Shown: positions 21,804 to 44,091 of the stretch, in pieces
Layout of the letters: every line of letters begins with the position of its first letter
Position numbering within the stretch: the first letter of the stretch is position 1
Source of the DNA: Pyropia yezoensis
Taxonomy: Eukaryota; Rhodophyta; Bangiophyceae; Bangiales; Bangiaceae
Length of the DNA stretch: 64,000 bases
Reading direction: 5' to 3'
Assembly (NCBI GenBank): GCA_009829735.1
Contig: CM020618.1
Coordinates: 13,870,568-13,934,567, forward strand
The notes under the pieces: model-generated
What the model was told of the DNA's origin: nothing
What the model saw: the letters and a program-made list of their open reading frames with translations, nothing else
Databases searched by the model: none
Program-made: the position numbers and the translations under genes

Positions 21804-21808
21804 GACGG
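21804..21808 (+). repeat. Target-site duplication of the outer LTR element (left copy)
   Basis: GACGG, repeated at 34044-34048 directly after the right LTR. Confidence 0.8.
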
Positions 21809-21983
21809 TGTAGCAATATGAATGACCGTATTGTGACCCTATTATAGGGGGACTACTTCTAACCCTTAACTTTCAATTTGGGAGTCCGTATTGGTCACGG
21901 TATCTATAAGTTACGTATAACCAGAGGGACTTGCATCTTGGGGTGAAGTGTAGTTAGTAGTGTCTCCGAGGGTTTATAACGAG
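21809..21983 (+). repeat. Left LTR of the outer element, truncated to 175 bp
   Basis: Aligns without gaps to 33682-33856, with about ten substitutions (roughly 94% identity by eye). It then stops abruptly where pol sequence begins. Confidence 0.8.
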
Positions 21984-24900
21984 CCATCACTGCTCGTGAT
22001 GGCGAACTATCGCGGTAAGGCAGTCACCCTTACGAAAGGGACAATCCTCGGGATCGCCGAACTCTACGAAGGAGACATCCTTACCCCTGACAAGGAAGGT
22101 CAAGTGGAACCACTTGAGGTACTGGCGGTCACCGAGGCCACCGAGCTGCAGGAACCCGATGACGGGAAACCTAACCCATCAACAGCTCCGGCGGACATTC
22201 CGCCAAAGGACCAAGAAGCCTTGAAGGCACTGGCCGAGGCTGACCTCGACCATCTTCACCCTTCGGTAGCTGAAGGGGTACGACGGATGCTAAGAAAGCA
22301 TGACGTCATGTGGACCGGCGGGGCTCTGGGTACCATTGGGGCAACCCAACACCGTATAGACCTGGTACCAGGTGCCCGACCAGCGCGGTCGCAGCCGCAT
22401 CGCGCGGGACCTATGCAACGAGAGATCTTTGATGGAGAAGTGAAGAGGATGAGCGAAGCTAATGTGATCCGACCTTCGATGTCGGAGTGGGGCGCCCCAG
22501 TCGTTATCGTACCGAAGAAGAATCAAACCCCTCGGTTCTGCATCGATTATCGACGCCTCAACTTGGTTACCAAGAAAGACTCATACCCTTTACCAAGGAT
22601 GGATGAGTGTATCGACTCCCTGGGGGAAGCCACAGTGTTTACTACTATCGACTGCAATGCCGGGTACTGGCAGATCCCAGTTGCAGAGGAAGATATCCCC
22701 AAGACGGCGTTCGTCTGTCACAGTGGAGTGTACGAGTTCCTAAGGAAGCCCTTCGGATTGTCCAACGCCCCCGCCACATTCCAGCGGGCCATCGACATTA
22801 TACTGTCGGGTGTGAAGTGGCGTAACTGCCTGGTGTACCTGGACGATGTCATCGTCTTCTCGCGTAACATGGATGACCATGTGCAACATGTCGACGAGGT
22901 ACTCACCCTCTTGCGGAACGCCGGGGTAACCCTGCGCCTCAAGAAGTGCGCCTTCTTTCAGCAGACCGTCGAGTATCTGGGTCACCAGATCACACCAGGT
23001 AAACTGGGAGTGCTCGAAGCTAATACCCGGGCACTCCGGGATGCGCGATACCCAACCACCCAGACACAGCTGAAAAGCTTCCTGGGGATGTGCAACGTAC
23101 ACCGACGGTTCGTCAAGGACTTCGCTCGTATAGCAAAACCGTTAACGGTTCTGACGAGCAGCGCCTTGCCAAAGGTACTCCAACCTCCCTCGCCCAGCGA
23201 GGGAGAGGCATTCGAGCTGCTCAAGCAAGCTCTGCTAGCCCCACCCGTGCTTGCGTTGCCGCATAGACGCGGGACCTTCGTCATCGACGTCGATGCCTGC
23301 GATACCCAAGTGGGATGCACTCTCTTACAGGGAGAGACAATCATCGGTACCGATAATGCTATCCTGGACCTACATCCGGTGGGGTACTTCAGCCGGACAC
23401 TCAACCCGGCTGAGCGTAACTATAGTGCCACCGAGCGCGAGTGCCTCGGAGTCATATGGGCAGTGCAACTGCTCCGACCATACCTGGACGGTTCCAGGTT
23501 CATCGTGAGGTCCGACCACGAACCTTTACGATGGCTTCTCAACCTTGGTGACAAGGATTCCGACAGCCACGGTCGGCTAGCCCGGTGGAGGCTGAAGATG
23601 GCCGAGCACGACTACCGGACCATATATAAGGCCGGCTCTACCCATCATCTGGGAGACGCACTGTCGCGACTCGATACACCGAGCGGGGATACCCGACAGG
23701 TGGATGAGGACATCCCGGTGGTACCAGTTTGCATGGTGGGTAACACCACCCAAGGTATGGTTGACCATACCATGGCACACCTTGCGTGCCCATTGACCCT
23801 CGCGGACTTCCGCGAGGCACAGGCCAATGACGATGACTGTAAACGCCATCGCGCTACCCTCCTCGCCGGCACGGCCGGCATCTTCTCCGACAACGAGGAC
23901 GGACTCATACAACGGCGGGCACCCGCCGATGGACGACATCAAGTCGTGGTTCCCGTGTCCTTACGACAAGCCGTCATGGAACGAGAACACGAGAACCCTA
24001 CAGCCGGACACCCGGGGGGCTCGCGCATGTTCGCAGCAATGCGAAGGTTTTTCTACTGGCCAGCAATGGCCGTCGACGTGGTCGACCACGTGCGGGGCTG
24101 CCACCCGTGTGCACGGAATCGTGTAAGTCTTCATAGGCGGGCATCCGCTATGAAACTATTCCCCCCGGATGGGCCCAACGAGCAAGTCGCTATCGACATA
24201 CTCGGGCCACTTCCGGTAACGGAAGAAGGGAACAGGTACATCCTGGTCATGTCGGACCGCTTTTCTAAGCTGTCACGAGCAGTAGCGATCCCGAACGACA
24301 CGGCCTACACGATCATGAACGCAGTGGTTGACCACTGGATCAGTGCTTACGGAGTAATGAAGCAACTCCTCTCCGACAACGGAGCCAACCTTACGTCAGC
24401 ATTCTGCACTAAGGTCATGGGCATGTTCGGTATCGAACCACGTCGGGCATCCGACTACCACCCGCACTCCAACGGGAAGGTGGAGCGGTTCAACCGCACC
24501 ATCGTCAAGATGCTCCAATGCTATGTGGCGGAACACACGAACACGTGGGACAGGCTTCTGTCCGTCCTGACCCTGGCATACAATGCCAGGCCCCACCGGA
24601 GTACCAGCATTGCTCCGCTGGAATGGGCCATGCCAATGGGCGTCGGTAATCTGACGCTGCCACCGGGCAGATGCACTCGGTATGACATACCGAAGGGCCG
24701 ACCGGCCGAACGGATCCACTTAGCTTGGTTGGCCAAGCTATCGTGGATGATACCTCAGCTCAAGGGTGCCCTTGACCGTACACAACTTCGATACAAGAAG
24801 AACTTCGACGCCCGGTTACGGGTACGCAACGCAACCCTGGTAACAGGTGACTGGGTCTACATCAGACACCAGAAGTTCCGAGGGAACAAGCTTATGCAAC

Positions 24901-25264
24901 CGGTCAAGGACCGTACCAGATCTCACACAGAGATTATCACTCTGTAATCCTGTACTCCGATACGGAGATACAACGCATCAATCTCAATGATGTGACACCT
25001 GCTCCGAAGCCGGAACAGCCTCAGCCGGCACCGGCTGGGTTGCTACATGAAGCTCTTACAACCCACCAGTCAGATGACCCGGTGGGGCCGGATGGGATTC
25101 CATACCAAGTAGAGAGCGTGGTCGGACACACCGACCCGGACCTACCAGGACCCTGGTACGTCAAGGTGATGTGGGTCGGATACGACTCACCCACCTGGGA
25201 ACAGGCGGCGAATATACCCCGCCAACTTCTGATGCCTTACATGAGGCGACGACACCTACTGTAA
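21984..25264 (+). pseudogene. Outer element pol: RT, RNase H, integrase, chromodomain; 5'-truncated with one frame break
   Basis: Copies the element and integrates the cDNA. Domains in order: the end of the protease-RT linker ('LTKGTILGIAE', about 22030); reverse transcriptase 22380-23150 with 'FCIDYRRLN', 'PFGLSNAPATFQ' and the YLDD catalytic motif near 22840; RNase H 23270-23650 ('IDVDACDTQVG', 'SATERECLGVIWAV', 'SDHEPLRW'); integrase with an HHCC finger (H and H near 23990-24010, 'CHPCARN' near 24100) and the D, D, E residues in 'AIDILGP' (24190), 'LSDNGANLTS' (24375) and 'NGKVERFNRT' (24470). The first frame stops at 24947. The expected 'GPYQI' tail and a chromodomain ('YVKVMWVGYDSPTWE', 25160-25200) continue one register back to TAA at 25264. 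The break lies in or beside a small palindrome at 24901-24913. There is no start codon because the 5' end is deleted. Confidence 0.9.
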
Positions 25265-25710
25265 CAACCCAACCGACACCGACTTCGGCTGTGGGGGGGT
25301 GAGGCTTATACCTACTAAGTAGGGTGTCACATGGATTCGGCACGACTTAGGTTCACTAAGTTGGAGCGGACTTAGGCAAACCAAGTAGGCTACTGACTTG
25401 AACAAGTTTACTTGAAGGAGATGACTAACCAATAATTTCAAGGTAACCTGAGGCTTACACCAAGGTAAACCTTCATCCATGGGGCAAGTGACGGACCGAG
25501 GAAGGTTGACCTTCATGAGTATTAACCAACCAGGATGGGTTTGGGGCGCGAGAAAAACCAAGGCAAGCCACTGCTAAGGCAAACGGGGTACTCCCCAAAG
25601 GCAGCCATTGGTATCATGCAAACGCCCCAGCGGGGGATGAGTTTATACTCACTACTACCCGGCCACCATAAGGGTCACCGGGTACCTCTCCCTCACAACA
25701 ATAGCACACA
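25265..25710 (+). other. Spacer between convergent pol and the antisense gene of the outer element
   Basis: Non-coding, with repeated ACTTAG, AAGTAG and CAAGT words in both orientations, including CTACT-A-AGTAG. It would hold the 3' ends of both transcripts. No polyadenylation signal stands out. Confidence 0.5.
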
Positions 25711-25870
25711 TCAGTGGGTAGACCCGCTGCCCGAGGGAGGCCACTCACGCGTAAGCGCGTACACCTCCATGCTCCACCGGTCGGCAATCTCGCGACGGTC
25801 AATCGCTCGAGTTACCTCGGTGCATAGCTCGACGAGAGTGCTGCGGCCAGCCTCCACTTCATCCAGAGCT

Positions 25871-25875
25871 GTCTG
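25871..25875 (+). repeat. Target-site duplication of the inner LTR element (left copy)
   Basis: GTCTG, repeated at 30894-30898. Confidence 0.9.
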
Positions 25876-26343
25876 TGTGGCAGTATTGACCCCCAGGTAG
25901 GGGGCAACACGTGCCATGCAAGGGGCGGCAGGCCACTAGCCTGATCCGTTCCTCCCCCTGCATTTGGGTCCATATTCCCTAAGTTCGGGATAGTTAGCTT
26001 AGTAGTAAATCCAACTTGGATTTGAGGGTTTTCTGCATTTATCGTCTTGAATTTTCGTGTGGCCCGGTGGGCAGGTGCTGGGGTGGGAGATTCTGAGTGG
26101 CGAGATTCTGAGTGGACCCTGGGGGGATAAGGGGAGGGACAGCGGGGCTTGGCCCTGCGTCCCCGTCCCGACCAAGAAACTGTTGGACCACACACCATCT
26201 TCTTGTTTGTCCGTGGGGGGATTGCCCCACAACAGGGATAGAGTGTGTGCGACTTGCACTTCTTCCGGTTCCCCCGACACGGGAGGCAGCCCTCGCACAC
26301 CGCCCCAACTTGGGTACCGTGTGTGCGAGTGGTTTTTGCCACA
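25876..26343 (+). repeat. Left LTR of the inner element, 468 bp
   Basis: Matches 30426-30893 throughout by eye. Contains two palindromes centred on CAACTTG (26007-26023 with 8-base arms, and near 26309), plus a tandem GAGATTCTGAGTGG pair near 26088-26115. Confidence 0.95.
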
Positions 26344-26345
26344 TT

Positions 26346-26363
26346 TGGTGGAGCAGCAGGGGA
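26346..26363 (+). other. Primer-binding site of the inner element
   Basis: Two bases after the LTR, an 18-base stretch begins with TGG, as expected for pairing to a tRNA 3' CCA end. It is consistent with an acceptor stem ending CTGCTCC-A-CCA. Which tRNA this is cannot be told from this window. Confidence 0.6.
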
Positions 26364-27039
26364 CAGAGGTAAACTTTACCTCCGGGTGCACCCGGGTGTA
26401 GGGGGCCCTCTGTCTCAGAGGAACGGTGGTCTTGGACTGTGTCGTGTGGATCGTTAGCCAACACGGCTGGATCGGACCTCCCGACGTTCGGGAAACTCTC
26501 CGGTGACGACTTTACCCCGGCGCCTTTGAATACTGGCCAGACACAGGGTGTACCTGGGGTCGCGGAGGTGCTAGAGGCACTCCAGCCAGCAGGGCCGTGG
26601 GTATCGGTGCGGGCGGTATGCCACCCCGACCCAGTCGGGTGTTCACCCTGAGGGTCTTTCTCGGACCGGTGGTTCGCACTTCGGCCACCGGGTGGTACAC
26701 TCAAAGGGAACGTCCCAAGGTGAGAGGACTGTCCCCGCGAGATCCACTCGGGTTGGATTCAACTTCGGCATAGAGCCGTCGCCAACTAGGCGGGTGGAAG
26801 ACGGCGGACCTTCACTCGTCGGTGATGGGCTCGAGCCTGTGACAGGGGTCGTAGCAAGTTGCTACCCCCGCCACCCTCAAAGAAAGTATCTTTGATCGGG
26901 AGCCAAGTTCGGCTATATCGACCAACATGAGGGACCGGTAGTAGCAGCCACCCTCAACGCGGGCGCGAGTAGCGACCCGAGGTCCGGAAAGGAGAAGCAT
27001 CAAGCCAAGTCGGCCGCCTCTCCTCGGCCCCAGGTAAAC
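26364..27039 (+). other. Leader region of the inner element
   Basis: About 680 bases without a recognisable sense gene; the usual gag and protease are not seen here. Contains a GTAGCAA-G-TTGCTAC palindrome at 26851-26865 and a CCGGTGG/CCACCGG pair near 26665-26690. Confidence 0.5.
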
Positions 27040-28029
27040 ATGGAGGGTGTTCCACCCAGGTTGAGGGTTCAAGTTGAACGCCTCTTGGACCAATATCACA
27101 AGTTGTGGGATGGTCAATTGGGACTCATGAGAGCCACCCAACACCGGATCGAGTTGAAACCCGGTGTACCCCCTATACGCCAACAACCGTATAGGGGAGG
27201 GCCCCGTTCAAGGGCCCTCGTCAAGGAGCGCTTCAACAAAACTATTGTTAGGCAGCTGCGCCACTATGTGAGTGAGCATGTGAAAACGTGGGACCAATAC
27301 ATTTCTATTCTTACCACTGCCTACAATTCGCAGGTTCACTCATCTACCGGGGAAGTACCCCTCGCTTTTGTGACCCCCCGTCGCGTGCGGTCTATTGCTG
27401 TGCGGCGGTCGCTCCCAACTAGGGAGGATGATGGCAGCACGCCTACTCCTACTGAGAGTAAGGCGGAGTTCGCTGCTAGGCTTGAACACCTCATCCCTAA
27501 AGTCAGGGCTGAGATGGACAAAGCACAAAAGCGCTACAAGCGTACCTTTGACAAAAAGGGGCGCAATGCTAAGCATGTCCCCGAACAGGGTGACTGGGTG
27601 CTGGTTCACTCACACACCCCAACTGGGGGTAAGTTGGTATTCCAGACGAAGGGGCCGTACCAGGTCCTTCGTACTGATGGGCGGCGTTTCACCATCGAAA
27701 GTGACGATGGGGTCCGCACAGTGAACGGACAGGACGTGGTCAAAGTTGCACCACCGCCTGCAGGCGACCCAGCTTGGGCGCGTGCTTTGGAAGCGTGGCG
27801 CCTCCCCTCACTGCCTGCGGCCAAACAGGGCCCGCAGGAGTACGTGTTCGATAAGTTCATCGACCACGGATGGGATGAGGATACTAACCGCCTCATGTTG
27901 AGGGTGCGTTGGTTTGGCTACAAAGCCAAGGATGATACGTGGGAGTATGTGGAGGACCTTCCCGCTGAGAAGGTCCGGGCGTACTGGGCCCGGAATGAGA
28001 TAGACCCTAACAGCCCTCCCTCAACGTGA
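27040..28029 (+). pseudogene. Pol remnant of the inner element: pre-RT segment fused to integrase end and chromodomain
   Basis: 329 codons, open. Residues 1-55 ('ATQHRIELKPGVPPIRQQPYR') correspond to the start of the RT region of the outer pol. After about residue 58 the sequence jumps to the end of the integrase core ('ERFNKTIVRQLRHYVSEH', about 27230), then the integrase tail ('YKRTFDKKG', 'QGDWVLVHSH', 'KGPYQVL') and a chromodomain (about 27840-27990: 'VRWFGYKAKDDTWEYVEDL'). Reverse transcriptase, RNase H and the integrase D and D residues are missing. The product cannot copy the element. The deletion junction lies within an imperfect palindrome at 27200-27222. Confidence 0.85.
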
Positions 28030-28140
28030 GGGAAGGCCGAGCAACAGTGCCAAGAGAGTGCTTCAAGTCGAAGTGGTACGCAGAGTGGCTTTTAACTACA
28101 GCCCTAATCCTCACACTCTCACAACAAAGGCAGCTGCCAA

Positions 28141-30084
28141 CTAGGCACGCATGCTAGACTCTCCCACTCCACGGCCCTCGCCCTCACGTGGAGGCGAGCG
28201 GCGAGACCCACGCCGATAACGGTCTCCACTTGTTGGAGGGGGCGGCGGCTCCAAGTCGGAACCGTCGCGTCCCTCACGGTCGCGCAAGTGGCGCCGACCG
28301 TGGCCACTCTTCTGCCTGGTCTTGCGCGCAAGTTTGCGACGCAGACGCTGGACAGACTCCGTCTCCGACGGGGTAGAGGACTCCGAAACGGAGTAAGACA
28401 ACTCGTCTTCCGATACGGAAGGAGAGCGCCGCGAGTGTCGGCGACGACGGCGAGGAGGCGAGTATGCCCGGCTCGCGCGACGTTTGCCACGCCCAAGTGG
28501 GGCTGGCTGGGGCATAATAGCCCCAATGCGAGCCAACTCGGCCGTCATAAACTCCGCCACCGACTCGCAACTCGCGGTCGCCACTGCAGTACGAACGCGC
28601 TCCTCAAGTTGAGGAGTCTCGGAACTTTGGAGGGTTGCGGTCGACGCGGCCAACCAGGAAATGGTGCGCACCAACGTGGTGATCATCATCTCTGAGGTTA
28701 GAGGCGTGGGCGGTAACACCAACTTGGGGTATACCGTCAGGAGGGTGGCCCCCAAGTTGGGAGACACCGGTGTGGATGACTCCACGGCCACGCTGATCGG
28801 GATGTTCCCGTGAGGCTGGAAAGGAACAGGAGGAAGCGGAGGGGCACGCCGAGGTGGCGGTACCCGGGTGTAACTGCGACCCCGACTTGGGGCCCCCGCA
28901 GTAGGTTGAGTCATATGGTCATCATATGAGGGCACAGCCATAACTATGGGCTTGTCCGGGGGTGGCGCAGTGTGACGATCCACCCCCGGGGCATACGGGT
29001 AGTCCCCGATGCCCAACCCCTCTCGTAGGACCACACGGCCGTCGTGAAGTTCACGAGCGACCCACACGAACTGGCGAAGTGCGCCATCGTCCTTGGGCCC
29101 CCGAGTGGGGCGGCGCAACTTGTGCTCAATGCTCTCCCACTCGATAAACTTGTGGAGGCGGAGCATCTCCTCAAGTAGAGTGAGTTGTCCTGACGAGCAC
29201 CCCTCAGCAACTAGCTGAGGGGTGAGCTGTTCCAAACCCTGGATGAGCCGGAGGGGGAGATGCCAGAGCATCCCCCGCCGCTGAACACATGACACCCAGG
29301 TCGACATGACCTCGAGGAGCCACTGGGTGGCCAACATGGCCCACACCAGATGATCAGGGCCAGCCGTCAACATGACGGAGCCGAAGTGGTCAAGCAACCG
29401 TGGCAACAATGCCGGGAACCCGTAGGGGACCTCAACTTGAGGCCACCACTCGGGCTTCTTCGGGTAGTATTGCTCCTTACTGGCAGCAGACTGCTGAGGA
29501 AACTCAAGTTGAGCCGAGGTCACCAAGTAGGGACCTCGCCGGAAGTCCTTCTCCATCCGCACATCAAAGTGATGAGTGTGCGGATCGGCCTCGTGAAGGT
29601 ACGGGGGGCGAGTTGCCACCGCGTCCCAAGTGAAGGTCGGCAAGTCGCCGGGACCCGGGATAGTTCCCCCGCGGTCCACCATGGCCTTGGCCCGCTGCAC
29701 GTCCTCGACCTCCTCGTCGTCCAGGAAGGCAAACTGGTCCGTCCTGAAGCCGGCAGGGAACCCGACCCTACGGGGATACTTCTCCCGTAGGCGGTCCCAT
29801 ACCCGACCCATCGCTGCGCCGAGTCGGCCACAGCGAAGAACAGTCAACCCCTCCTCATACAGAGGCCAAGCGGGGTAAAACCACCGCCCCAAGGCCTCAC
29901 GCGGGACAACTTGTCCCGCCTCCGGGGGAGATCCTGCCGTCAGCCCAAAGCCGGGTGACGCGGGAGTCCCACCCCCCGGAGCGATCGCGGAGCCCCCGCC
30001 GGAAGTCCCGGCAGGCGCTGCACCGTAGGAGGTGTCCTCCATACGCTCATCGAGAGAGTCCGTCTCCACTCCCGGAGTCGCCAT
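28141..30084 (-). CDS. Intact antisense ORF of the inner element (unknown family, basic C-terminus)
   Basis: 647 residues, convergent with the pol remnant and 112 bp from its stop. The start at ATG 30084 has the context GAGCCATGG; an upstream in-frame ATG at 30255 is less likely. N-terminal 60 residues Gly/Pro-rich; residues about 75-330 look globular and mostly helical ('WYPAWPLYEEG'-like start, 'HFGSVMLTAG' at 233, 'RRGMLWHLPLRL' near 268, 'LLEEMLRLHKFIEWE' near 297); a Pro-rich linker; a second helical block about 430-520; and an Arg/Ser-rich tail (about 530-640) suited to nucleic-acid binding. No CCHC knuckle, protease or transmembrane segment. The outer element has a related ORF in the same place and orientation, so this is a conserved gene and not a chance reading frame. 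A Gag-like coat role would fill the missing function but is unproven. Confidence 0.7.
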   Translation of the reverse strand: MATPGVETDSLDERMEDTSYGAAPAGTSGGGSAIAPGGGTPASPGFGLTAGSPPEAGQVVPREALGRWFYPAWPLYEEGLTVLRCGRLGAAMGRVWDRLREKYPRRVGFPAGFRTDQFAFLDDEEVEDVQRAKAMVDRGGTIPGPGDLPTFTWDAVATRPPYLHEADPHTHHFDVRMEKDFRRGPYLVTSAQLEFPQQSAASKEQYYPKKPEWWPQVEVPYGFPALLPRLLDHFGSVMLTAGPDHLVWAMLATQWLLEVMSTWVSCVQRRGMLWHLPLRLIQGLEQLTPQLVAEGCSSGQLTLLEEMLRLHKFIEWESIEHKLRRPTRGPKDDGALRQFVWVARELHDGRVVLREGLGIGDYPYAPGVDRHTAPPPDKPIVMAVPSYDDHMTQPTAGAPSRGRSYTRVPPPRRAPPLPPVPFQPHGNIPISVAVESSTPVSPNLGATLLTVYPKLVLPPTPLTSEMMITTLVRTISWLAASTATLQSSETPQLEERVRTAVATASCESVAEFMTAELARIGAIMPQPAPLGRGKRRASRAYSPPRRRRRHSRRSPSVSEDELSYSVSESSTPSETESVQRLRRKLARKTRQKSGHGRRHLRDREGRDGSDLEPPPPPTSGDRYRRGSRRSPPREGEGRGVGESSMRA

Positions 30085-30412
30085 GGCTCTCCCCAAGTTG
30101 GGGAGAGACGTCCTGGCTATCGCGGCACGAGACCCGCCTCGAGTTGAGGGGGACTCGGATCGTGGGTAAACGGGTGGCCTCCCCAGCGTGGGGTGGCCCC
30201 GTGTAAGGTGAAGGAGAAGTGGTGGTGGTGGTGAGGTGTGAACCGAGGAGAGCAAGCTGCCAAGTGGGCAAGCTTGAGGAGAGGGGCGGCCAACGTGACC
30301 GCCTCCACATCCGCGTTACGTACTCAAGGGGGGACAGCAAGTCGCGTCCCCCCCAACGCCGAGACGTGCGTTTACGCACCCCCTCACAGGGCCGACCGGG
30401 TCGGTCGGAACT
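30085..30412 (-). other. 5' region of the inner antisense gene
   Basis: No second gene. Holds a perfect palindrome at 30087-30107, two bases upstream of the antisense start codon, and smaller ones (CCCCA-GCG-TGGGG near 30185, GTGCG-TTTA-CGCAC near 30366, GACCG-GGT-CGGTC near 30393). A promoter for the antisense transcript would have to lie here or in the right LTR; none is recognisable. Confidence 0.4.
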
Positions 30413-30425
30413 GAGGAGAGGGGAG
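30413..30425 (+). other. Polypurine tract of the inner element
   Basis: GAGGAGAGGGGAG immediately before the right LTR, the normal primer for plus-strand synthesis. Confirms the element's orientation. Confidence 0.8.
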
Positions 30426-30893
30426 TGTGGCAGTATTGACCCCCAGGTAGGGGGCAACACGTGCCATGCAAGGGGCGGCAGGCCACTAGCCTGATCCGTT
30501 CCTCCCCCTGCATTTGGGTCCATATTCCCTAAGTTCGGGATAGTTAGCTTAGTAGTAAATCCAACTTGGATTTGAGGGTTTTCTGCATTTATCGTCTTGA
30601 ATTTTCGTGTGGCCCGGTGGGCAGGTGCTGGGGTGGGAGATTCTGAGTGGCGAGATTCTGAGTGGACCCTGGGGGGATAAGGGGAGGGACAGCGGGGCTT
30701 GGCCCTGCGTCCCCGTCCCGACCAAGAAACTGTTGGACCACACACCATCTTCTTGTTTGTCCGTGGGGGGATTGCCCCACAACAGGGATAGAGTGTGTGC
30801 GACTTGCACTTCTTCCGGTTCCCCCGACACGGGAGGCAGCCCTCGCACACCGCCCCAACTTGGGTACCGTGTGTGCGAGTGGTTTTTGCCACA
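30426..30893 (+). repeat. Right LTR of the inner element, 468 bp
   Basis: Same sequence as 25876-26343 by eye, ending TGCCACA, followed by GTCTG. Confidence 0.95.
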
Positions 30894-30898
30894 GTCTG
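30894..30898 (+). repeat. Target-site duplication of the inner LTR element (right copy)
   Basis: GTCTG, as at 25871-25875. Confidence 0.9.
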
Positions 30899-33097
30899 GA
30901 GGCGGTCCAGCACGCTACCGAAGCAACGCGCGGAACCAACCGGCGCAGCACCTGGGGGGATATCCCCCCAGCTAACAGAGAGACTCTCCCGCAGCTCGAG
31001 GGCAACAAGGGCGTCAACGCCCTCATACCACAGACGGGGACCCCCGTCAGGCATGACAGAAGCAGAAGGTGACACTGGCGCAGCCAGAGGGGCCACAGGA
31101 GCCGACACGGCTACCACCGGAGCCGGTGGCGCCTGATACGAGGCCCGGTAGGACCCCACTGAAGGGGCTCCACCGTAAACCCAGCGGGGCTGCGCCCGAC
31201 GACGGGACACCTCACGCTCCCCACCCGCAGAGTCCCACTCTCGGGGACGACGGCCAACCGCCACCGGTATCGGGTTACCGAACCACGGGGCGAGGACCTG
31301 TAGAGGGTCATGGATAACCATGGGAATGCCCAGGTCAGGAACAGCCTCGGTGGACGCCCACCCACGGCAATTGGGCTCACCCGGCTGAGTACGCCGGATG
31401 CGCAACGAGTGACGAGGCAAGGGGGCAGCCCCAGCCTGCGGATCCCGGTACGGGGGAAGGTTCAACACCCCAGCCCAGTTCACGGCATCGTGAACGGCCA
31501 GGAGGGCCTCGAACTCCCGGGCCAACCCGGTCTTGGCAGCGATCATGTCTACACCCAGCTGCCCGATATGCCGACGGACACCCGTCGGAAGATGAAACAG
31601 GCGCCCCTGCCGACGGACGGACAGCAAGAAGGAGGAAGCCTGCCCGAGGGTAACCTCAAGGGTGAAGGTCCCCTGCAACGGGTGGACAGGCCGGGAGGCC
31701 AACACACTACCGAAGTATCGGAGACAGGAGCCGGTGTCAAACCGGAAAGCAGGGGCGGGCTCCCACCACTCCTGCCACAGAGGCGGGCGCACGGGAGTGT
31801 ACACCGGCGCACGACCGTTACCGGTCTGCAACGCACACGATATATCGGTGCGGAACGCATCCGCCATGACACCATGGTTGCGTCGCTAGCTCGACGCCGA
31901 CTTCAACCCCGCCATGGGCGAGTACGGAGCCGTCAACGTCAGATACGGGGATACCCCCGGGAAGTACTCAAACCCGGGATACCGGCCGGTATCGCCCACC
32001 GTCTGCCCAAACGCCACAGGAGCCACCGCAGACGCAACCCCCCGAGCACTAGCCGGGTATTGAACCTCCCGCGGCAACGCGGGGGCAACCAAGTCGCATA
32101 TCCCGAAGGCGGGGTCGAGAAAGACTTCACCCCGCCCCACCCGGGTGCGCCAGAGCTGCGCATGCCGGTCGTCCGGCTGACTCAGGACCCAAAGATGCTC
32201 CACCCGGACCGCATTCGGCTGGTTGACCAGCCGCACCAACTCCCGCTCCCAACTTGGGTCCGACTTGACACGCCAGGAGGACCCTCCACGGTGACGCGGC
32301 TGGTGGAAGTCCACCCGCATCCGCCCAGTGGAGTCCATGGACTCCTGCACGGTGAGGCCTCGAACCCGAGCCACCAAGTCGGACATCGACAGGGAGGGTT
32401 GACCCGCCACCAAGGCGACGCCGCCACCCAGCGGGGCAACCCTGGCGGGCCCAGGAAGAATCGGTGGCGCCGGGGGAAGCCCCACCGGCAGATGGGCCGG
32501 TACCACAGGCGCACGGGGCCGAGGAGGAAGAAGAAGGGCGGACGCCCGCCCGGAGTAGCTCCCGGAGTCCACCGCCATCGGGGAAGACACGTCTTGACCA
32601 CCTGTTGCCCGCGGCACCGCGGGCAGAGCGTCGCCGCCACCCGGGCCCGACGTAGGCACAACGGGGACGGAAAGGGAAGACCCGTTACCCACCTCCGCGG
32701 ACGCACCACCAACCGGGCGGGCACCCGCGCCGTCTTGACCCGCCGTCCCGGTCGGGGTACCGCCACGACCGTCCGACACACCAGCTGCACCGTCTTGGGG
32801 TAGAGCCGCGCCGGCACCGGCGACAGGAGCCATCCGGGCCTCCGGAGGAGCAGGAGTAGAGGCAGCCACACGCGGTTGACCGCCACCCGACGGAGCAATC
32901 GTGCCGCTGCACACGGACGACAATCCGCCTGGCGCGCCTTCCGCGGCCACACGGACGGTTACCCGGTCGTCATCGTCCGACGAACTCGCCAGGAAGCACT
33001 CGGCAGCGGTGGCGGAGACGGGAACGTCGTCCTGCATCACCTCTTCCTCCTCAAGCAGGAGGTCGTCCTCGCCCCCGGGCACCTGGGGGTCCGACAT

Positions 33098-33669
33098 GGT
33101 GGAGCCGGTGTAGCAGGGGCGCCCCGTGCCAAAAAGCCGCAGCCGGCTCGACCCGGTACATGGAACGCTTGCAGACGAGCCAGGGAAGCGCGGGCACCCG
33201 CGCTTATAACCACACAGCTCAGCACGAGCGATACGGCAGCGCGGGACGACCCGCGCCAGCCGAGCTACGAGGTCGCTCCACCCAGGCACCTGGATCGGGG
33301 CCACGCCCCCCACGCGGGGTAAACAAGGGGGGTCACCCCCAACCGCCCCCACGCAACGCGGGCAGCCCCCGCTCCCCACTCAATCGTCCACACAAGAGGG
33401 GCCCCCCTACCACCAAACGCCTGGTGGCGGATCCGCTTGCACCACCCCTCGGAAAGGGGGGTCGTGAACTAAACCCGCATCGGGAGTTCAACGGTCCGGA
33501 AAACGGATCGTGTGTGTACCACACAAAGAGGGGCACCCCCCTCAGACAACCTCGAAAAGGGGTGTCTGTCGCGACAGGGCGCAAAGCCCCACCCGACTGG
33601 TAAACGGTCACGCGACCCTTTTACATTCGGAAACCCGAATGCAACTCGACCCGAGGACGGGCCGAATCT
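33098..33669 (+). other. 3' untranslated region of the outer element
   Basis: No sense gene seen. Rich in short inverted repeats: AAGCGCGGG-CA-CCCGCGCTT near 33189-33208, GCGCGGG-ACGA-CCCGCGC near 33239-33256, CCACCA-AACGCC-TGGTGG near 33410-33427 and CTGTCGCGACAG near 33567. On the minus strand it is the leader of the antisense gene. Confidence 0.5.
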
Positions 33670-33681
33670 AAGGGGGGAATA
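33670..33681 (+). other. Polypurine tract of the outer element
   Basis: AAGGGGGGAATA directly before the right LTR. Confidence 0.65.
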
Positions 33682-34043
33682 TGTAGCAACATGGATGACC
33701 GTATTGTGACCCTAATATAGGGGGACTTCTTCTAACCCTTAACTTTCAATTTGGGAGTCCGTACTGGTCACGGTATCTATAAGTTACGTATGACCAGAGG
33801 GACTTCAATCTTGGGGTGGAGGGTAGTTAGTAGTGTCTCCGAGGGTTTATAACGAGGGGGCCGGCGGCGAATCCACCGCCGGCCATGGTAGAACAACGAA
33901 CCCCTCCCATTTGGGCTCCCATCTTGGTCCCGTGGCTTGCGCTCCAAGGACAGCAACCTTGGCCTCCCGGTGACGTTGATGCCGATCCCCCTTGGTGAGT
34001 GTTCCCTGAGAGTGGACGTGCAGCGGATACCTATTGTGCTACA
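33682..34043 (+). repeat. Right LTR of the outer element, 362 bp
   Basis: Starts TGTAGCA and ends TGCTACA, followed by GACGG. Contains a strong hairpin at 33859-33884 (9-base arms beginning GGCCGGCGG). Only its first 175 bases have a partner at the left end. Confidence 0.85.
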
Positions 34044-34048
34044 GACGG
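34044..34048 (+). repeat. Target-site duplication of the outer LTR element (right copy)
   Basis: GACGG, as at 21804-21808. Confidence 0.8.
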
Positions 34049-37986: not shown

Positions 37987-38673
37987 TTGGGGACGTGGAT
38001 CCATCGATCCTTCCCAGACTCGTTCCGAGTCGGCGACGGACTCATGGTGGCACGTGTTGGCAACATGCATCTCACACAATTGCACTAAATAGAACCCCAT
38101 TACCACATTCTAAATCCACAGCCCATGACAGTCACCTGGCACTCAGACGGCCAGCGTCTGGGGCGTGACCCCGCTTGGGGATTGACGACGACTTGCCGAC
38201 CACCCCGCCCACCGCGGCGTGGACGCGCGCACGGTACGAGGTGTGGGGGGGGGGGGGGGCGGTGGCCTTGCCTGGTTTTGCCAGGAGCGCGGCCGCGCCG
38301 CCGCGTCCCGGGACAGCCATCCCCGCCGCGCGCGCCGCGGCTGGGGCTCCCCGTCCTCCCACCGGCCGCGTCCGCCGCGGTCGCCAACCGCGCTTCCCCC
38401 CCTTCCCGTCCCCCTCCCCCGCTGACCTGCCCCCGCCCCCCCCCCCCCCCGCTCTGTGTGCGCGTGGCCGTGCGTCGGGTCGCCCCGCCGTCTATCCTCT
38501 CAACGCTCCACCTCTTCCCCTCGCCCCGCCCCCCCCCCCACCCCCGCGCGCGCCCCCCCCACGCCCCCCCCCCCACTCCCGCAGCCGCCCCCCCTCTGCC
38601 CGGCGCGCGCGCGCGCGCGCGCGTGCCGTCCCCTGTCGGGCCCCCCCCCTCCCCCCCCCTTGCGTGTGTGGGG

Positions 38674-41600
38674 ATGCGGCCGCCGCGGTCGCAGCCGCGG
38701 CGGCGGCTGGCGCCGCCGCCGCCGTCGGTGGATGGTGCCACCACCCGCGGCGGGACCGCCGCCCCGTCGACCGTCGTTGTCGCGCTGGTCGTGGCGCTGG
38801 CGCTGGTGGTGGGGGCGTGGCTCGGCGCCGCCGCCGCGCCCGCCGACGCTGCCGCCGCCGCCGCTGTTGGCGCCGCCACCACCGCCGCTGGCGCTGCTGC
38901 CGCCGCCGCCGCCGCTGACGTCGGCGCTGCTGCCTCGTCGGGGGCCACCGGCGGCGACTTGAATGGCGGCAGCGGCGGCGGCGGCGGCGGCGGCGGCCGC
39001 CGCGGCGGCGGCGGTGGCACCCCGCCGGGCTCGTGTGCGGTGGGCCCGGCGGCGCCGGGGGGGCTCCCCATTGGCCTCACCGCCGGCCAGAGGGAGCACG
39101 GCCACCAGCGGGGGGCCACCGCCGCCGCCGCTGGTGCCTCTTGGCGGGCTGGCCGCCGTGCCGGCGGCCCGGTGGCGCCAGCCGAGGCGGCCGCCGCGGC
39201 CGCGGCGGCGGTGGCGGCGGCGGCGGCGGCGGCGACGCCGCCAGGCGCCGGCGGCGGCAGCGTCGACAGGGACCGCGGCCGTGGCGGCGGTGTTGCTTGT
39301 GGGGGTACCGGTGGTGCGGGGGCGGCGGCGTCGGCCGGTGTGGGTGGCTTGGCAGGCGGCTGCGGCGGTGGGCGTGGGAGCTCCCTAGCCGGCAGCGGGC
39401 TGCTGCTGCTCGCGCACGCGGACGGGTGGGTGTCGGCGGTGGCTGCCACAACGGGCCGGCAGCTGTGGCGGGTCCGGGCGGGGGAGCCCGCGCTCAGCGC
39501 CTGGGCCGCCCCCGGCTGGCCGACCTTCCTCCCGGGTATTGATGGGAGCCTCTTTCGGCTGGACGAGGCCCCCAGCGGGAGGGGGGGTGCCGACGGCGGC
39601 AGCGGCGGCGGCCGTGGGCCCGGCGCTGGGGGGGTGCCGGCGCAAGGGGCCGCCCCCATGCTGCAGCCGGTCCGGTCGGCGTTTACGCCCCTCCGCCGGC
39701 GCGGGGGCGGCGGGCGGCGGGTGAGCCTGGGCGACGCCGTGGATGGTGGCAGCGGCGGCGGCGGCGGCGGTGGCGTCGGCGCCAACAGCGCGGCTGACGG
39801 GGTGCTGATCTCGCGGCAAAACACGCGCGCCATCTACGTGTCGCTACGCACGGGGGAGCTGCTACGGGAGCTGTCGTTTGACGATGACGCGGCGGCGACG
39901 GGTGCGAGGGGGGGCGGGTCGGTCCCCCCCCCGCCGCCCCCCTCTGGGGTGCCCCCCGGGGGTGCCCCTCCCCTGCCCCCCGAGGTGCTCCTCCTCTCCC
40001 GCACCGACGTGCGGATAAGCGTGGTGCACGTTGGCAATGGCATGACGGTAGCCAATGCGACGCTCGCGCACGTCACCCCGTCGCTCCTCGTCGGCGACAC
40101 GTGCGTGGTGGCGCGGGGGGAGGGCATGCCTCCCCTGCCTCCATCGTCGGGGTGGGGAGGGGGGAAGGCGGCGGGCGGCGGGAGCGGCAGTGGCGGCGGC
40201 GGCGGCGGCGGCGACGGCGGTGTTGCTGCTGACGGGCTGGTGGCGAGCCTCTCCCCCGACCGCCGCACCCTGTCTGTGCGGTCGGGCGGCAGCGGCGGGC
40301 GGGTGCTGTGGTCTACCGCCCTCTCGTCGGTGGTCATTGACGCGCACAGCATGGGCGCTGTGACTGTGGCTGCGCCCGTTGTGGCGCCCGCTCTCCCCGC
40401 CGGCAGCGGTGGCGGCAGTGGCGGCGATGGAGACGGGGGCGGCCCCGCTGGTGCCACCCTCCCCGTCCCCGTTCGGGCGGTGGTGGCCACCAGCACCTCC
40501 ACTGGTGGCCGCTGGGCGCGGATGCTGCCCGCCGGGGAGGTGCGAGCGCCGGCGCCGGGGGAGGTCATCCACACGGTGGGGGCAGCGGAGTTGCCGCCGT
40601 CGCGGGCGGCGGTGTATCCCGGAGATGTCGGGGGCGCGTCGCATGACCGGCTGACCGTGGGGGCCAGGGATCTGGGGGGGGGCGACGCCGCCACGTTCCT
40701 TCCTCTCTCCGTCTCGCCCGCCGAGGGCCCCGCCTGGCGTGGTGGAGGCCGTGGCGGTGGATCCGCTGCCGCGGCCGCCGCCGCTGGCGCCCCGGGCGGG
40801 GGTGGTTTTGGCGGTGCTGCCGGTGGCGACCGCCGTGGTGACGGTGCGCGCGCTGCCAGCGGCGGCGATTTTGGCTGGGGCGGGGGGGGTCGCTACCACC
40901 CCGCGGCGGTCCCCGCCCCCCCTCCCCGCTCGGCCGCATCTGACGCGGCCATGGCGGCTGCCGCCGGCATGGCCGGCGCTTCCACCGTGGTAATATTCTT
41001 TGGGGCGGCCCTGCTTTACCTCCGGCGCCGCCAGCGGCTGCTCGGCCGCGGGGGCGGCGGCGGCATACCGTCGGCCCTCGATGCTCTGCTTGGGATGGAG
41101 CCGCCAGCAGCCTCTACGGCCGGGGGCACGGGGGGCGGCGGCGCGTCGTCGGCGGCCGCGCGAAAGCGGGCGCGTCAAAAGCGGAGACGAGCTGCCGAGC
41201 GGGCGGCGGCCGCAGCGGCGGCTGCTGCCGCCACGGCTGCGGCCGCTGGGGATGGCAGTGACGGCAAGGGCGATAAGGGCGACTCGGAGGGCGATGGGGA
41301 CGGCGGTGGCAGCGTGGGCAGTAGCACTCTCGACAGCACCATCGACGGGCAGAGCATGACGGTGGCTTCGACAGAGGACCCGACGAGCAGCAGCTACGAG
41401 CACGCCACGGCAGCCATGCCGTGGACGCTGGTCGCGGGGCGAACGGCCCGGCCGCCAACGCTGACGCTGAACGTGGCACCCGTGGCGGGTGTGCACTCAG
41501 CCGGGTTGGACACGGTGCGGCGACGGGCAGGCATCCCGGTGAGCAGTGGGGGCAGCTCTCAAGGCGGGCACTCTCCGTCCTCGGAGCGGCCTTCTTCCAC

Positions 41601-44091
41601 TGTCGCGGCCGCTGCCGCCGCCGCTGCCGCTCCTGCTGGCGCCCCTGCCGCCGACACTTCGTCCGCTGGGACTGCTGCTGCAGCGGCGGCTGCGCCCGTT
41701 GCTCGCGGCGCTGCGGCATGGGCGTCGACGGCTGTCTCGAGCCGGAACACGTCTACCACTGTCGGTACTGGAACCGGCGACGAGCCAGTCGGCGACGACG
41801 GCCAGCCGCTGTGGACGACTGTCGGGCGGTTGGACGTGTCCTCCACAGTTTTGGGCACCGGCTCCCATGGCACCGTAGTGTACGAGGGTCTGCTCCAGCC
41901 TGGTGGCCGGCGGGTTGCGGTCAAGCGTCTCCTCCGTGCCTATTACGCAGCGGCGCGGTCGGAGATGGAGCTCCTCATTGACCTGGACGAGACGCCCCAC
42001 GTGCTCCGCTACTACGCGATGGAAGAGGACCGTCACTTTCTGTACCTGGCCCTTCAGCTGTGCGCGTCGTCGTTGGCCGCTCGCCTGGCGCGGAATCCTC
42101 CGCTTGGCCTCCCTGCCGCCTTATCCATCTTGCGGCAGCTGGCGCGGGGTGTGGCAGACCTTCACACCCGGGGCGTCGTGCACCGGGACATTAAGCCCGC
42201 CAATGTGCTGCTCACACACCGGGGGGACGTCAAGATTGCCGACGTTGGCCTGGCACTCAGGCTCGAGGAGGACGCGTCCAGCTACGCGGCCGCCACCGGG
42301 ACGGGCACATCGGGGTGGCGGGCGCCCGAGGTGCTCCGGTCGGGATCCCGCCACACCCGTGCGGTGGACGTCTTCTCGACGGGCTGCGTCTTTGCCGCAG
42401 TCCTTGGCCGCGGCCGCCACCCGTTTGGCAACCGCCCCACGGCACGGGACGGCAACGTCCTTGCTGCCCGCCCCGACCTGTCGGCGCTGGACCATCTGAA
42501 ACTGCCCGAAGCCGCCGACCTCATCACCGCCATGCTGTCGCCTGACCCCGCTGCGCGCCCGACGGCATCGGCGCTGCTGCGGCACCCGCTGCTGTGGACG
42601 GATGATGTCAAGCTGGCGTTCCTTGTGGACGTGTCGGACCGCCTCGCCGACGTGCGGGCGGTGGGGGACGACCACCTGGGGCGGGCACTGGACGCGTCGC
42701 CCGCGGCGGTGGCGCACTGCTCGGATTGGGCGGTTGCGCTCGACACGGACGTGCTGGTCTCGGCGGGCGGGCGGGGCTACGAGCCTGGCTCCCTGTCTGC
42801 CCTTCTGCGGTTGGTGCGGAACAAGCGGAGCCACTATGCTGAGCTGCCGCCCGCCCTTCAGCGGATGCTCGGGCCGCTGCCCGCCATGGGCGGCGACACC
42901 AGTGCCAGCAGCAGCGACCTTATTGGCGCCGCCACCGCCGCCGCCGACCCCCGGGCGCCGCCGCACAACTTCCTCACTTACTTTACCTCGCGCGTGCCGT
43001 GGCTGCTCATGGCTGTCTACAAATTTGCTGCCACCACCCCTGAGGTGATCGCGGCGCCCCACTTTGCGCGCTATGGCTTTGCGCCGGCTATTGCCGCGGC
43101 GGCGGCCGCGGCGGCCGCGTCCCCGCCGCCCCTTTCTCTGTCGGCCGGCGGCCCCGGCGGCCGGTCGCTGACATTGGCGGCGGCGTCGGCGTCGGCGTCG
43201 GCGGCGGCAACGGCAGGCGGCCTCCCTCCCGGCTGGTCTGTCGACGTGTCTGTGGGGGGGCACGAGGAGGTGGTCTTCTTCCCGTCGGTGGGGAATGTCG
43301 AGGCGTGGCCGCCCAATGTGCCACACGCGCTGTCGCGGCGCACCTACTCGCCGGCGACGCTGCTGGCGCTCCGCCCCGCGCCCGGCGAGTGCCCCGAGCC
43401 GCCGGCGCTGCCGCCGGCGCTGACCGCCCGCCCCGACTGGGCGGCGGTTGTTGCGGGGGGGCGCAGCCGCAGCGGCAGTGGCACCGCCATCAGCGGAAGC
43501 AGCGCTGGCAGCGGCGGTGGCGGCGGCGTCGGGAACGCCCTCTTTGGGCGGCACGGCGGCGCCCCCGCCGCCGGTCGGAGTGTGGACAGCCCGCCCCTGC
43601 GGTCGCTCCCGCTGCCACTGCCGCTGCGGTCAGCGGCGCCCCCCCCCGTGCCCCTCGGTGCGCCGGGCGCAACGACCACCCCCGCCGCCACAGCCACCGC
43701 CACTGCCGCGCCGCCCACCATCGCCGCCGCGGCGCGGCCGTGGCGGGTCCTCGAATGGCGCTCCCGCCCCGTCGGGGGTGCGCTTCCCAAGGGCCCGTCT
43801 GCGTTTGGCGCGATTGGGCCGGGGCCCCCCGCCGCCGCCGCCGCCGCCACCAACGCCACCGCCCCCACCACCGCCGGCCGGGCGCCGTCGTCGTGGCGGG
43901 GGCGGCCACCGCCGTCGGCGTCAGCGACGGTGCCGTCGGGGGCGACCGCGGCCACCACGGCGGCCGCGCCGGCGCTGGCTCGCGGCGGGCCGCCGGGCTT
44001 TCCCGCCGCCCCGCCTGCGGCGCCCGCGGCGCCGGCACGGCCGCCGGGTTTTGGCGGTTGGGGCGGCTGGGGGGATGGCAAGGTGGCCTAG
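38674..44091 (+). CDS. IRE1: IRE1-type ER stress sensor kinase/endoribonuclease
   Basis: Senses unfolded protein in the ER lumen and cleaves target RNA in the cytosol. 1,805 residues, single exon. Order: signal segment 33-51 ('TVVVALVVALALVV'); Gly/Ala-rich linker; luminal beta-propeller-like domain about 240-610 ('LLAHADGWVSAV', 'FLPGIDGSLFRL', 'TRAIYVSLRTGELL', 'LLSRTDVRISVV'), which matches the IRE1 sensor; transmembrane segment about 770-785 ('STVVIFFGAALLYL') followed by RRRQR; kinase about 1050-1310 with 'GTGSHGTVVYEG', catalytic Lys 1084, HRD at 1170-1172 and Asp 1190 in DVG where DFG is usual; KEN ribonuclease 1312-1470 with 'RNKRSHY' at 1382-1388 and 'FLTYFTSRVPWLL'. A 335-residue disordered tail follows, longer than usual. 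The start was chosen because the ATG directly precedes the signal segment; the ORF is open upstream but only as Pro/Arg-rich sequence. Confidence 0.92.
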   Translation: MRPPRSQPRRRLAPPPPSVDGATTRGGTAAPSTVVVALVVALALVVGAWLGAAAAPADAAAAAAVGAATTAAGAAAAAAAADVGAAASSGATGGDLNGGSGGGGGGGGRRGGGGGTPPGSCAVGPAAPGGLPIGLTAGQREHGHQRGATAAAAGASWRAGRRAGGPVAPAEAAAAAAAAVAAAAAAATPPGAGGGSVDRDRGRGGGVACGGTGGAGAAASAGVGGLAGGCGGGRGSSLAGSGLLLLAHADGWVSAVAATTGRQLWRVRAGEPALSAWAAPGWPTFLPGIDGSLFRLDEAPSGRGGADGGSGGGRGPGAGGVPAQGAAPMLQPVRSAFTPLRRRGGGGRRVSLGDAVDGGSGGGGGGGVGANSAADGVLISRQNTRAIYVSLRTGELLRELSFDDDAAATGARGGGSVPPPPPPSGVPPGGAPPLPPEVLLLSRTDVRISVVHVGNGMTVANATLAHVTPSLLVGDTCVVARGEGMPPLPPSSGWGGGKAAGGGSGSGGGGGGGDGGVAADGLVASLSPDRRTLSVRSGGSGGRVLWSTALSSVVIDAHSMGAVTVAAPVVAPALPAGSGGGSGGDGDGGGPAGATLPVPVRAVVATSTSTGGRWARMLPAGEVRAPAPGEVIHTVGAAELPPSRAAVYPGDVGGASHDRLTVGARDLGGGDAATFLPLSVSPAEGPAWRGGGRGGGSAAAAAAAGAPGGGGFGGAAGGDRRGDGARAASGGDFGWGGGGRYHPAAVPAPPPRSAASDAAMAAAAGMAGASTVVIFFGAALLYLRRRQRLLGRGGGGGIPSALDALLGMEPPAASTAGGTGGGGASSAAARKRARQKRRRAAERAAAAAAAAAATAAAAGDGSDGKGDKGDSEGDGDGGGSVGSSTLDSTIDGQSMTVASTEDPTSSSYEHATAAMPWTLVAGRTARPPTLTLNVAPVAGVHSAGLDTVRRRAGIPVSSGGSSQGGHSPSSERPSSTVAAAAAAAAAPAGAPAADTSSAGTAAAAAAAPVARGAAAWASTAVSSRNTSTTVGTGTGDEPVGDDGQPLWTTVGRLDVSSTVLGTGSHGTVVYEGLLQPGGRRVAVKRLLRAYYAAARSEMELLIDLDETPHVLRYYAMEEDRHFLYLALQLCASSLAARLARNPPLGLPAALSILRQLARGVADLHTRGVVHRDIKPANVLLTHRGDVKIADVGLALRLEEDASSYAAATGTGTSGWRAPEVLRSGSRHTRAVDVFSTGCVFAAVLGRGRHPFGNRPTARDGNVLAARPDLSALDHLKLPEAADLITAMLSPDPAARPTASALLRHPLLWTDDVKLAFLVDVSDRLADVRAVGDDHLGRALDASPAAVAHCSDWAVALDTDVLVSAGGRGYEPGSLSALLRLVRNKRSHYAELPPALQRMLGPLPAMGGDTSASSSDLIGAATAAADPRAPPHNFLTYFTSRVPWLLMAVYKFAATTPEVIAAPHFARYGFAPAIAAAAAAAAASPPPLSLSAGGPGGRSLTLAAASASASAAATAGGLPPGWSVDVSVGGHEEVVFFPSVGNVEAWPPNVPHALSRRTYSPATLLALRPAPGECPEPPALPPALTARPDWAAVVAGGRSRSGSGTAISGSSAGSGGGGGVGNALFGRHGGAPAAGRSVDSPPLRSLPLPLPLRSAAPPPVPLGAPGATTTPAATATATAAPPTIAAAARPWRVLEWRSRPVGGALPKGPSAFGAIGPGPPAAAAAATNATAPTTAGRAPSSWRGRPPPSASATVPSGATAATTAAAPALARGGPPGFPAAPPAAPAAPARPPGFGGWGGWGDGKVA

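What the first reader, a model, noticed from the sequence alone, without database searches (positions are those of the whole stretch)
25711..33097. Two nested LTR elements share a conserved antisense gene opposite pol
Seen: both the outer and the inner element have pol with a chromodomain on the plus strand and one long ORF on the minus strand in the 3' half, converging on the pol stop. Primer site, polypurine tracts and LTR polarity fix plus as the genomic strand. The two antisense products resemble each other by eye: F-G-S-V-(L/M), later R-R-x-G-x-L-x-H-L-P, then L-L-x-x-H-x-x-x-W. Neither element shows gag upstream of pol, though both have 5' or internal losses. Known: antisense extra ORFs exist in some plant elements, but a conserved one across two diverged families with no visible sense gag is unusual. 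Inference: an ambisense Ty3-type lineage in which the antisense gene supplies a structural or regulatory function.
Basis: partly seen in the sequence, partly recalled or inferred. Interest (0 to 1): 0.9.

Follow-up and report, generated by a model that had tools for sequence, protein, structure and literature searches.

The report
Antisense accessory gene in nori retrotransposons
Two nested jumping genes in the edible seaweed nori each carry an extra protein gene on the opposite strand, related between the two families and shaped by selection, but relatives of both also carry the ordinary structural gene, so the extra gene looks like an accessory and not a replacement.

Summary
The window lies in a 107.5 Mb genome whose three large contigs match the scaffolds of Neopyropia (Pyropia) yezoensis. 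An inner Ty3/gypsy-type element (25876-30893) sits inside an outer one (21809-34043); each has a long minus-strand ORF between pol and the 3' LTR. The two antisense proteins are homologous (28% over 118 aa, E 1e-7; profile 15.9 bits against at most 4.2 for 500 shuffles). Copies vary in antisense codon phase: dN/dS is 0.07 and 0.39 in copies picked by protein score, 0.18 and 0.47 in copies picked by neighbouring non-coding DNA. So the gene is real. The gag argument fails: the window copies lost gag by deletion, while other copies in the same genome have a long sense gag with a CCHC motif upstream of pol in both families, together with an open antisense gene. The layout LTR-gag-pol-(antisense gene)-PPT-LTR is that of plant Grande, RIRE2 and Retand, here with a protein that matches no Pfam family, in a red alga. 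A regulatory nuclear role is inferred, not shown. Separately, both families are packed with short hairpins of family-specific loop type, far beyond the host DNA tested.

The parts
21809..34043 (+). Outer Ty3/gypsy-type element, bounded by TSD GACGG (21804-21808 and 34044-34048), interrupted by the inner element
   Evidence: LTR remnant and 3' LTR, TSD
21809..21983 (+). Remnant of the outer 5' LTR, fused to pol by a deletion that removed the rest of the LTR and gag
   Evidence: 94% to 33682-33856; sequence
21985..25256 (+). Outer pol (RT, RNase H, integrase in ORF 21960-24947; the rest in another frame); end estimated from L034
   Evidence: Pfam; alignment to L034
25876..30893 (+). Inner Ty3/gypsy-type element, gag-less deletion derivative, LTRs 25876-26343 and 30426-30893, TSD GTCTG
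27040..28029 (+). Inner pol remnant: first part of RT joined in frame to the end of integrase with a chromodomain-like end (329 aa)
28141..30084 (-). Inner antisense gene, 647 aa from ATG (open to 30255, 704 aa)
   Evidence: 63 of 63 scored genome matches without stop; dN/dS
30894..33097 (-). Outer antisense gene, main part (ATG at 33097); TAG at 31886-31888 in this copy
25711..25899 (-). End of the outer antisense gene, separated by the inner insertion (the first bases of this match reach into the inner LTR)
   Evidence: outer aa 761-822 at 25899-25714
33682..34043 (+). Outer 3' LTR
28600..28616 (.). One example of the family-specific palindromes (core CAASTTG); others at 26007, 26851, 29901, 30087

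Best explanation
A lineage of Ty3/gypsy-type elements in the nori genome carries, besides sense gag and pol, a third gene on the opposite strand between pol and the 3' LTR. Shown: the gene is homologous between two families, is present in the copies sampled, and varies in antisense codon phase, so its protein has been selected; gag is present in sense in both families. Inferred: it is transcribed from an antisense promoter in the roughly 340-580 bp between its ATG and the 3' LTR, or in the LTR, and makes an accessory protein without a membrane-like segment and, in the inner family, with a basic arginine/serine-rich tail. It most likely acts in the nucleus to regulate the element or help its RNA or cDNA, as proposed for plant antisense accessory ORFs. 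The antisense mRNA is complementary to the 3' part of the genomic RNA, so the two may also form dsRNA, a built-in brake. The window copies look gag-less because they are deletion derivatives; the inner one has itself been copied to at least five places, presumably with proteins from other copies.
For: Homology of the antisense proteins. Codon-phased variation: variable columns 8/1/36 in 21 inner and 149/142/255 in 10 outer copies, dN/dS 0.071 and 0.393; 0.179 (10 copies) and 0.469 (8 copies) when copies were chosen by non-coding DNA. Long sense gag with CCHC in both families, same elements open for the antisense frame (same element inferred from spacing). Antisense and Gag diverge to a similar degree between families, 28% over 118 aa and 24.5% over 220 aa. 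No hydrophobic segment above 1.44 (19-residue Kyte-Doolittle mean), basic cluster in the inner tail. Deletion derivative shared by 5 of the 20 loci first fetched, with different 3' flanks.
Against: No transcript or protein data. Of 10 outer copies used, four carry one in-frame stop in the ORF; 14 of 123 scored outer matches show a stop. L056, one of 10 inner copies chosen by non-coding DNA, has 12 single-base indels. The basic tail is not found in the outer protein. dS is lower in the inner antisense gene (0.012) than in the neighbouring pol end (0.039), so something besides protein selection, such as exchange between copies, also acts. The nuclear role rests on analogy.
Confidence: 0.6

Rival explanations
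1. Ambisense element: the antisense protein is the structural Gag of a gag-less lineage.
For: The two window copies have no sense gag.
Against: Sense gag with CCHC upstream of pol in L033, L035, L036 (inner) and L038 (outer); Gags of the two families align to each other (E 1e-17) and do not appear among the listed profile hits of the antisense protein.
Confidence: 0.04
2. The antisense transcript matters as RNA: it pairs with genomic RNA and feeds silencing or translation control, and the protein is secondary.
For: Full complementarity to the 3' part of the genomic RNA follows from the layout. Discussed for plants in PMC7264820 (parts 1-2 of 3 read).
Against: Codon-phased constraint in the antisense frame needs selection on a protein.
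Confidence: 0.2
3. A host gene captured in antisense by the ancestor of both families.
For: No Pfam family matches the protein; capture is one origin discussed for extra ORFs (PMC7264820).
Against: The own-genome lists are filled by element copies, so a distant host relative could not have shown; no relative confirmed in viral or GTDB contigs, which would hardly hold algal genes. Essentially untested.
Confidence: 0.1
4. Chance ORFs of a GC-rich sequence.
For: The window holds many long ORFs in all frames; a 634-aa sense shadow ORF lies opposite the outer antisense gene in L034.
Against: Antisense frame dN/dS 0.07-0.47 against 1.11 and 1.03 for the shadow frame in the outer family; homology between families.
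Confidence: 0.02

Closest known systems
Plant LTR elements with antisense aORF between pol and 3' LTR (Grande gene23, RIRE2, PvRetro13), and fungal Boty, as reviewed in PMC7264820 (parts 1-2 of 3 read)
   Same: Extra antisense ORF at the same place, kept in many copies, conservation similar to other element proteins, gag and pol in sense, function unknown.
   Different: Host is a red alga; the protein has no Pfam match. No direct comparison with the Grande, RIRE2 or Boty proteins was run. Antisense promoter and nuclear location, known for Grande, are untested here.
Retand lineage with the TRP28 domain (PF04195), PMC11963269 (passages read)
   Same: [quoted passage not shown] a regulatory role proposed.
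   Different: No PF04195 match at E up to 1 in three antisense stretches of the window or in L034; Retand is described as non-chromovirus and only in flowering plants.
Antisense genes of retroviruses (HBZ of HTLV-1, APH-2 of HTLV-2), as described in PMC11963269
   Same: Antisense gene in the 3' half; nuclear regulator is the model proposed here.
   Different: Analogy only; no sequence relation was looked for.

Membership tests
Ty3/gypsy LTR retrotransposon | LTRs TG..CA with short TSD, polypurine tract | tested here: met
Ty3/gypsy LTR retrotransposon | pol order RT-RNase H-integrase, protease before RT | tested here: met
   Pfam on outer pol; protease-like DTGAG motif before RT in L034, L037, L038 read by eye
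Ty3/gypsy LTR retrotransposon | sense gag with CCHC knuckle | tested here: met
   absent in the window copies; present in L033, L035, L038; Pfam zf-CCHC above cut-off for L035 only, L038 13.3 bits below it
Chromovirus | chromodomain at the end of integrase | tested here: inconclusive
   inner 24.0 and 22.1 bits, cut-off 25.1; outer no Chromo match
LTR element with antisense aORF between pol and 3' LTR | antisense ORF at that place in most copies | tested here: met
   inner: present in 10 of 10 copies chosen by non-coding DNA, 9 without indels in the part seen; outer: present in 8 of 8, one with a stop, four with indels not all multiples of three
LTR element with antisense aORF between pol and 3' LTR | antisense transcript from its own promoter | not testable with these tools
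   no RNA data
Retand lineage | TRP28 domain (PF04195) in the antisense ORF | tested here: not met
   Pfam scans

The most novel reading that the evidence does not exclude
The antisense protein is the partner of the family-specific palindromes that fill these elements. Each family has its own loop class (AASTT-like five-base loops in the inner, four-base loops closed by G-C in the outer) and its own fast-evolving antisense protein; the protein would bind these hairpins in DNA or cDNA and mark, fold, package or regulate its own element. That would be a self-recognition system spread over the whole genome of an LTR element, a kind not known to me.
Probability: 0.06. Interest if true: 0.9.

Novelty: new variant of a known kind. 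Interest (0 to 1): 0.5.

Why it matters
Antisense accessory genes of LTR elements are on record in flowering plants, in a fungus and in retroviruses, mostly with unknown roles. A red-algal lineage with an antisense gene that matches no known family, present in many young copies and under measurable selection, suggests that the arrangement arose more than once and serves the element. In nori it can be checked with strand-specific reads. The dense family-specific hairpins through gag, pol and the antisense gene are a second, unexplained property of the same two families.

Tried and rejected
Antisense gene as Gag substitute: rejected.

Sense shadow ORFs opposite the antisense gene (31310-32803 in the window; 634 aa in L034): rejected as genes; dN/dS of that frame 1.11 in 10 and 1.03 in 8 outer copies.

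Structure: one AlphaFold job on three window pieces, mean pLDDT 43.5, mostly helical; too poor for a fold search, none was run. PDB sequence search with the same alignment: 0 matches up to E 10. Relatives elsewhere: 4 and 137 pattern matches in viral and GTDB contigs, none confirmed.

Other gypsy families: the 12 loci with the best chromodomain matches (150 scored, 12 fetched) fall in three DNA clusters; a two-sequence profile found the antisense protein only in L048 (E 2.4e-7 and 2e-5), as a frame-broken piece of its start on the minus strand, about 1.1-1.4 kb beyond the L048 chromodomain. Only 1.5 kb beside each domain was seen. Whether L048 is a remnant of a third family with this gene or a chance neighbour is open.

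Hairpins as insertion targets: of 27 distinct insertions of inner copies, 10 could be placed in sequence that I held, 17 could not; 4 of the 10 lie in a hairpin of stem 5 or more, background about 28-34% of positions: no support. Hairpins as RNA structures of one strand: single changes in stems give G-U and A-C alike (30 and 34 distinct events, outer family): no strand favoured. Covariation: 6 double Watson-Crick cells in register, 9 with the partners slid by -1: no support. One row (outer pol window) was read in a wrong frame and is discarded.

Deletion derivatives: their antisense gene (21 synonymous, 4 non-synonymous variable codons in five copies) looks more constrained than their pol remnant (18 and 11; the full copies show 5 and 5 there), but exchange with other copies would also explain it.
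Full report
WHERE IT IS. The window is C1:13870568-13934567 of a 107,475,971-base, 11-contig genome. Contig lengths of C1, C2 and C3 are 43.59, 34.33 and 29.39 Mb; the published scaffolds of Pyropia yezoensis are 43.6, 34.3 and 29.4 Mbp (PMC7423979, passages read). The same passages give 48% repeats with LTR retrotransposons predominant. I take the organism to be Neopyropia (Pyropia) yezoensis.

ANATOMY. The inner element runs 25876-30893; its LTRs of 468 bp differ at 0 positions and the TSD is GTCTG. The outer element runs 21809-34043 with TSD GACGG. Purine tracts precede both 3' LTRs. The outer 5' LTR is cut at 21983 and fused to pol. The inner pol is an in-frame fusion of the first part of RT with the integrase end. 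Among the 20 loci, L001 (the window copy), L002, L003, L004 and L006 share that junction and the other 15 do not; the five have different 3' flanks, so the deletion derivative itself was copied. The inner element interrupts the last codons of the outer antisense gene.

SENSE GAG. I fetched 5' parts of further copies. L033 (inner family) has a sense ORF with a CCHC motif upstream of pol. L036 has the inner LTR at 518-985 and a sense ORF of at least 562 aa from 1015 (its end was not fetched); L035 has an open gag end of 418 aa with a knuckle that Pfam recognises (zf-CCHC 24.5 bits, cut-off 20.8). L038 (outer family) has an LTR at 207-574 and a 731-aa sense ORF at 780-2972 that ends in a CCHC motif and overlaps the PR-RT frame; Pfam scores that knuckle only at 13.3 bits, below its cut-off. 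The antisense frames that belong to these elements are open: L019 (724 aa) and C1:23179390 (825 aa); that each pair lies in one element is inferred from spacing. L034 (outer) lacks most of gag, as L037 seems to. L014, L031, L032, L033 and L035 contain 500-N runs, which I read as assembly gaps. I did not establish that any copy is fully intact.

IS THE ANTISENSE GENE REAL. In the own genome 63 of 63 scored matches of the inner protein have no internal stop. For a 324-aa stretch of the outer protein 14 of 123 scored matches show a stop (my count of rows). Both lists hold best-scoring copies only. In 21 inner copies the variable columns by antisense codon position are 8, 1, 36 and dN/dS is 0.071; in 10 outer copies 149, 142, 255 and 0.393 (duplicates L030, L031 and the outer part of L032 removed). 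None of these rows has an indel that breaks the frame; 4 of the 10 outer copies, the window copy among them, have one stop. The inner pol end gives 0.123. Every other frame gives a higher ratio; the nearest is the pol-strand frame whose third positions coincide (0.142 and 0.472), while the frame of the long sense shadow ORF in the outer family gives 1.11. Because protein score favours intact copies, I repeated the count in copies chosen by non-coding DNA next to the 3' LTR. Ten inner copies (first 443 codons) give 0.179 and eight outer copies, the window copy among them (first 377-380 codons), give 0.469. Nine of the ten inner copies are free of indels there; L056 has 12 single-base indels. 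Of the eight outer copies one has a stop and four have indels not all multiples of three. Five of the ten inner copies are also in the list. So the signal weakens in the less biased sets but stays.

RELATION BETWEEN FAMILIES. The antisense proteins align over 118 aa at 28% (E 1e-7); with another outer copy and other statistics 23% over 186 aa (E 8e-4). The outer profile finds the inner protein at 15.9 bits, above 500 shuffles (best 4.2) and unrelated window ORFs (best 8.5). For scale, the RT-RNase H parts are 50% identical over 562 aa and the Gags 24.5% over 220 aa. This fits descent from a common ancestor that already had the gene; transfer between families is not excluded.

WHAT THE PROTEIN IS. 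Pfam finds nothing above threshold (one sub-threshold DUF6214 at E 0.074 in the outer piece), the PDB sequence search nothing, and the AlphaFold model is unreliable. There is no membrane-like segment; the inner protein has a basic arginine/serine-rich tail, the outer one has none by the same patterns. I commit to an accessory, probably nuclear, regulatory role, as proposed for plant antisense ORFs (PMC7264820, parts 1-2 of 3 read; PMC11963269, passages), with dsRNA formation as a likely side effect. My odds: a selected gene 0.95; accessory and not a Gag substitute 0.9; nuclear regulator 0.4.

PALINDROMES. In the inner element I saw repeated CAA(C/G)TTG cores in self-complementary arms of differing sequence (11 in 26344-30425, 0.49 expected from 200 dinucleotide shuffles, maximum 3). 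Both families carry an excess of short perfect hairpins (stem 6 or more, loop 3-8; observed against 30 shuffles): outer gag/PR 24 against 3.7, pol 25 against 4.4, antisense 17 against 4.9; inner window copy 23 against 6.1, gag 11 against 2.5, pol 16 against 4.4. Of eight other window segments seven give z between -1.0 and 0.8 and one (14-16 kb) 2.7; five stretches with other gypsy elements give 1.8 to 3.0. The excess survives synonymous-codon shuffling in six ORFs of the two families (z 3.5 to 6.2), against 0.0 to 2.1 in four other gypsy pol ORFs and 0.6 in the host ORF 38125-44091. Folding energies of 150-nt windows average z from -1.41 to -2.60 on either strand in the two families and from -0.77 to 0.12 in two other gypsy loci and three host segments. 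The inner family prefers odd loops (AASTT-like), the outer even loops; 68 of 80 four-base loops of L034 are closed by G-C. In the outer family stems vary less than the rest (103 of 948 against 1277 of 7312 columns, p 9e-8), but not significantly in the antisense ORF alone (p 0.35) or in the inner family (p 0.23). Compensatory changes are few (4 distinct) and no more frequent than in a slid control. G-U and A-C changes are equal, which points away from one RNA strand. Hairpins are not clearly insertion targets (the weak palindrome preference of plant LTR elements is in PMC6911290, passages read). I cannot explain this. The antisense region of each family carries the same kind of hairpins as its gag and pol, which suggests that the gene has long been part of each element.

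LITERATURE. Searches on antisense ORFs, aORFs, Pyropia/Porphyra retrotransposons and hairpin-rich retrotransposons (listings seen) showed no report of an antisense gene in a red-algal element or of such a hairpin load among the papers listed; the library holds open-licence papers only, and only the top of long lists was seen.

VERDICT. A real, selected antisense accessory gene in a red-algal gypsy-type lineage: a new variant of a known kind. The gag-less ambisense reading is refuted.

Noticed in passing
25876-30893; L031, L036 (inner family); L034, L038 (outer family): Both families are packed with short perfect hairpins (stem 6 or more), about 6-11 per kb against about 1.5 expected, with family-specific loops (AASTT-like five-base loops in the inner, four-base loops closed by G-C in the outer). 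Survives synonymous-codon shuffling; no strand preference; unexplained.
   Followed up: partly
L001, L002, L003, L004, L006: A gag-less deletion derivative of the inner family with one shared junction sits at five places with different flanks and keeps the antisense ORF open in all five; the pol remnant diverges faster.
   Followed up: partly
L048:2715-3069: A decayed fragment about 76% identical in DNA to the start of the inner antisense gene, on the strand opposite a different chromodomain gypsy element; maybe a third related family.
   Followed up: partly
L012, L054, L060, L001, L004, L025, L059: Seven of 27 distinct inner insertions lie inside outer-family copies and three (L005, L015, L057) inside inner-family copies: nesting is common.
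   Followed up: partly
38125-44091: Single 1988-aa plus-strand ORF with very Ala/Gly-rich stretches and a protein-kinase-like region by eye (recalled, not searched).
   Followed up: no
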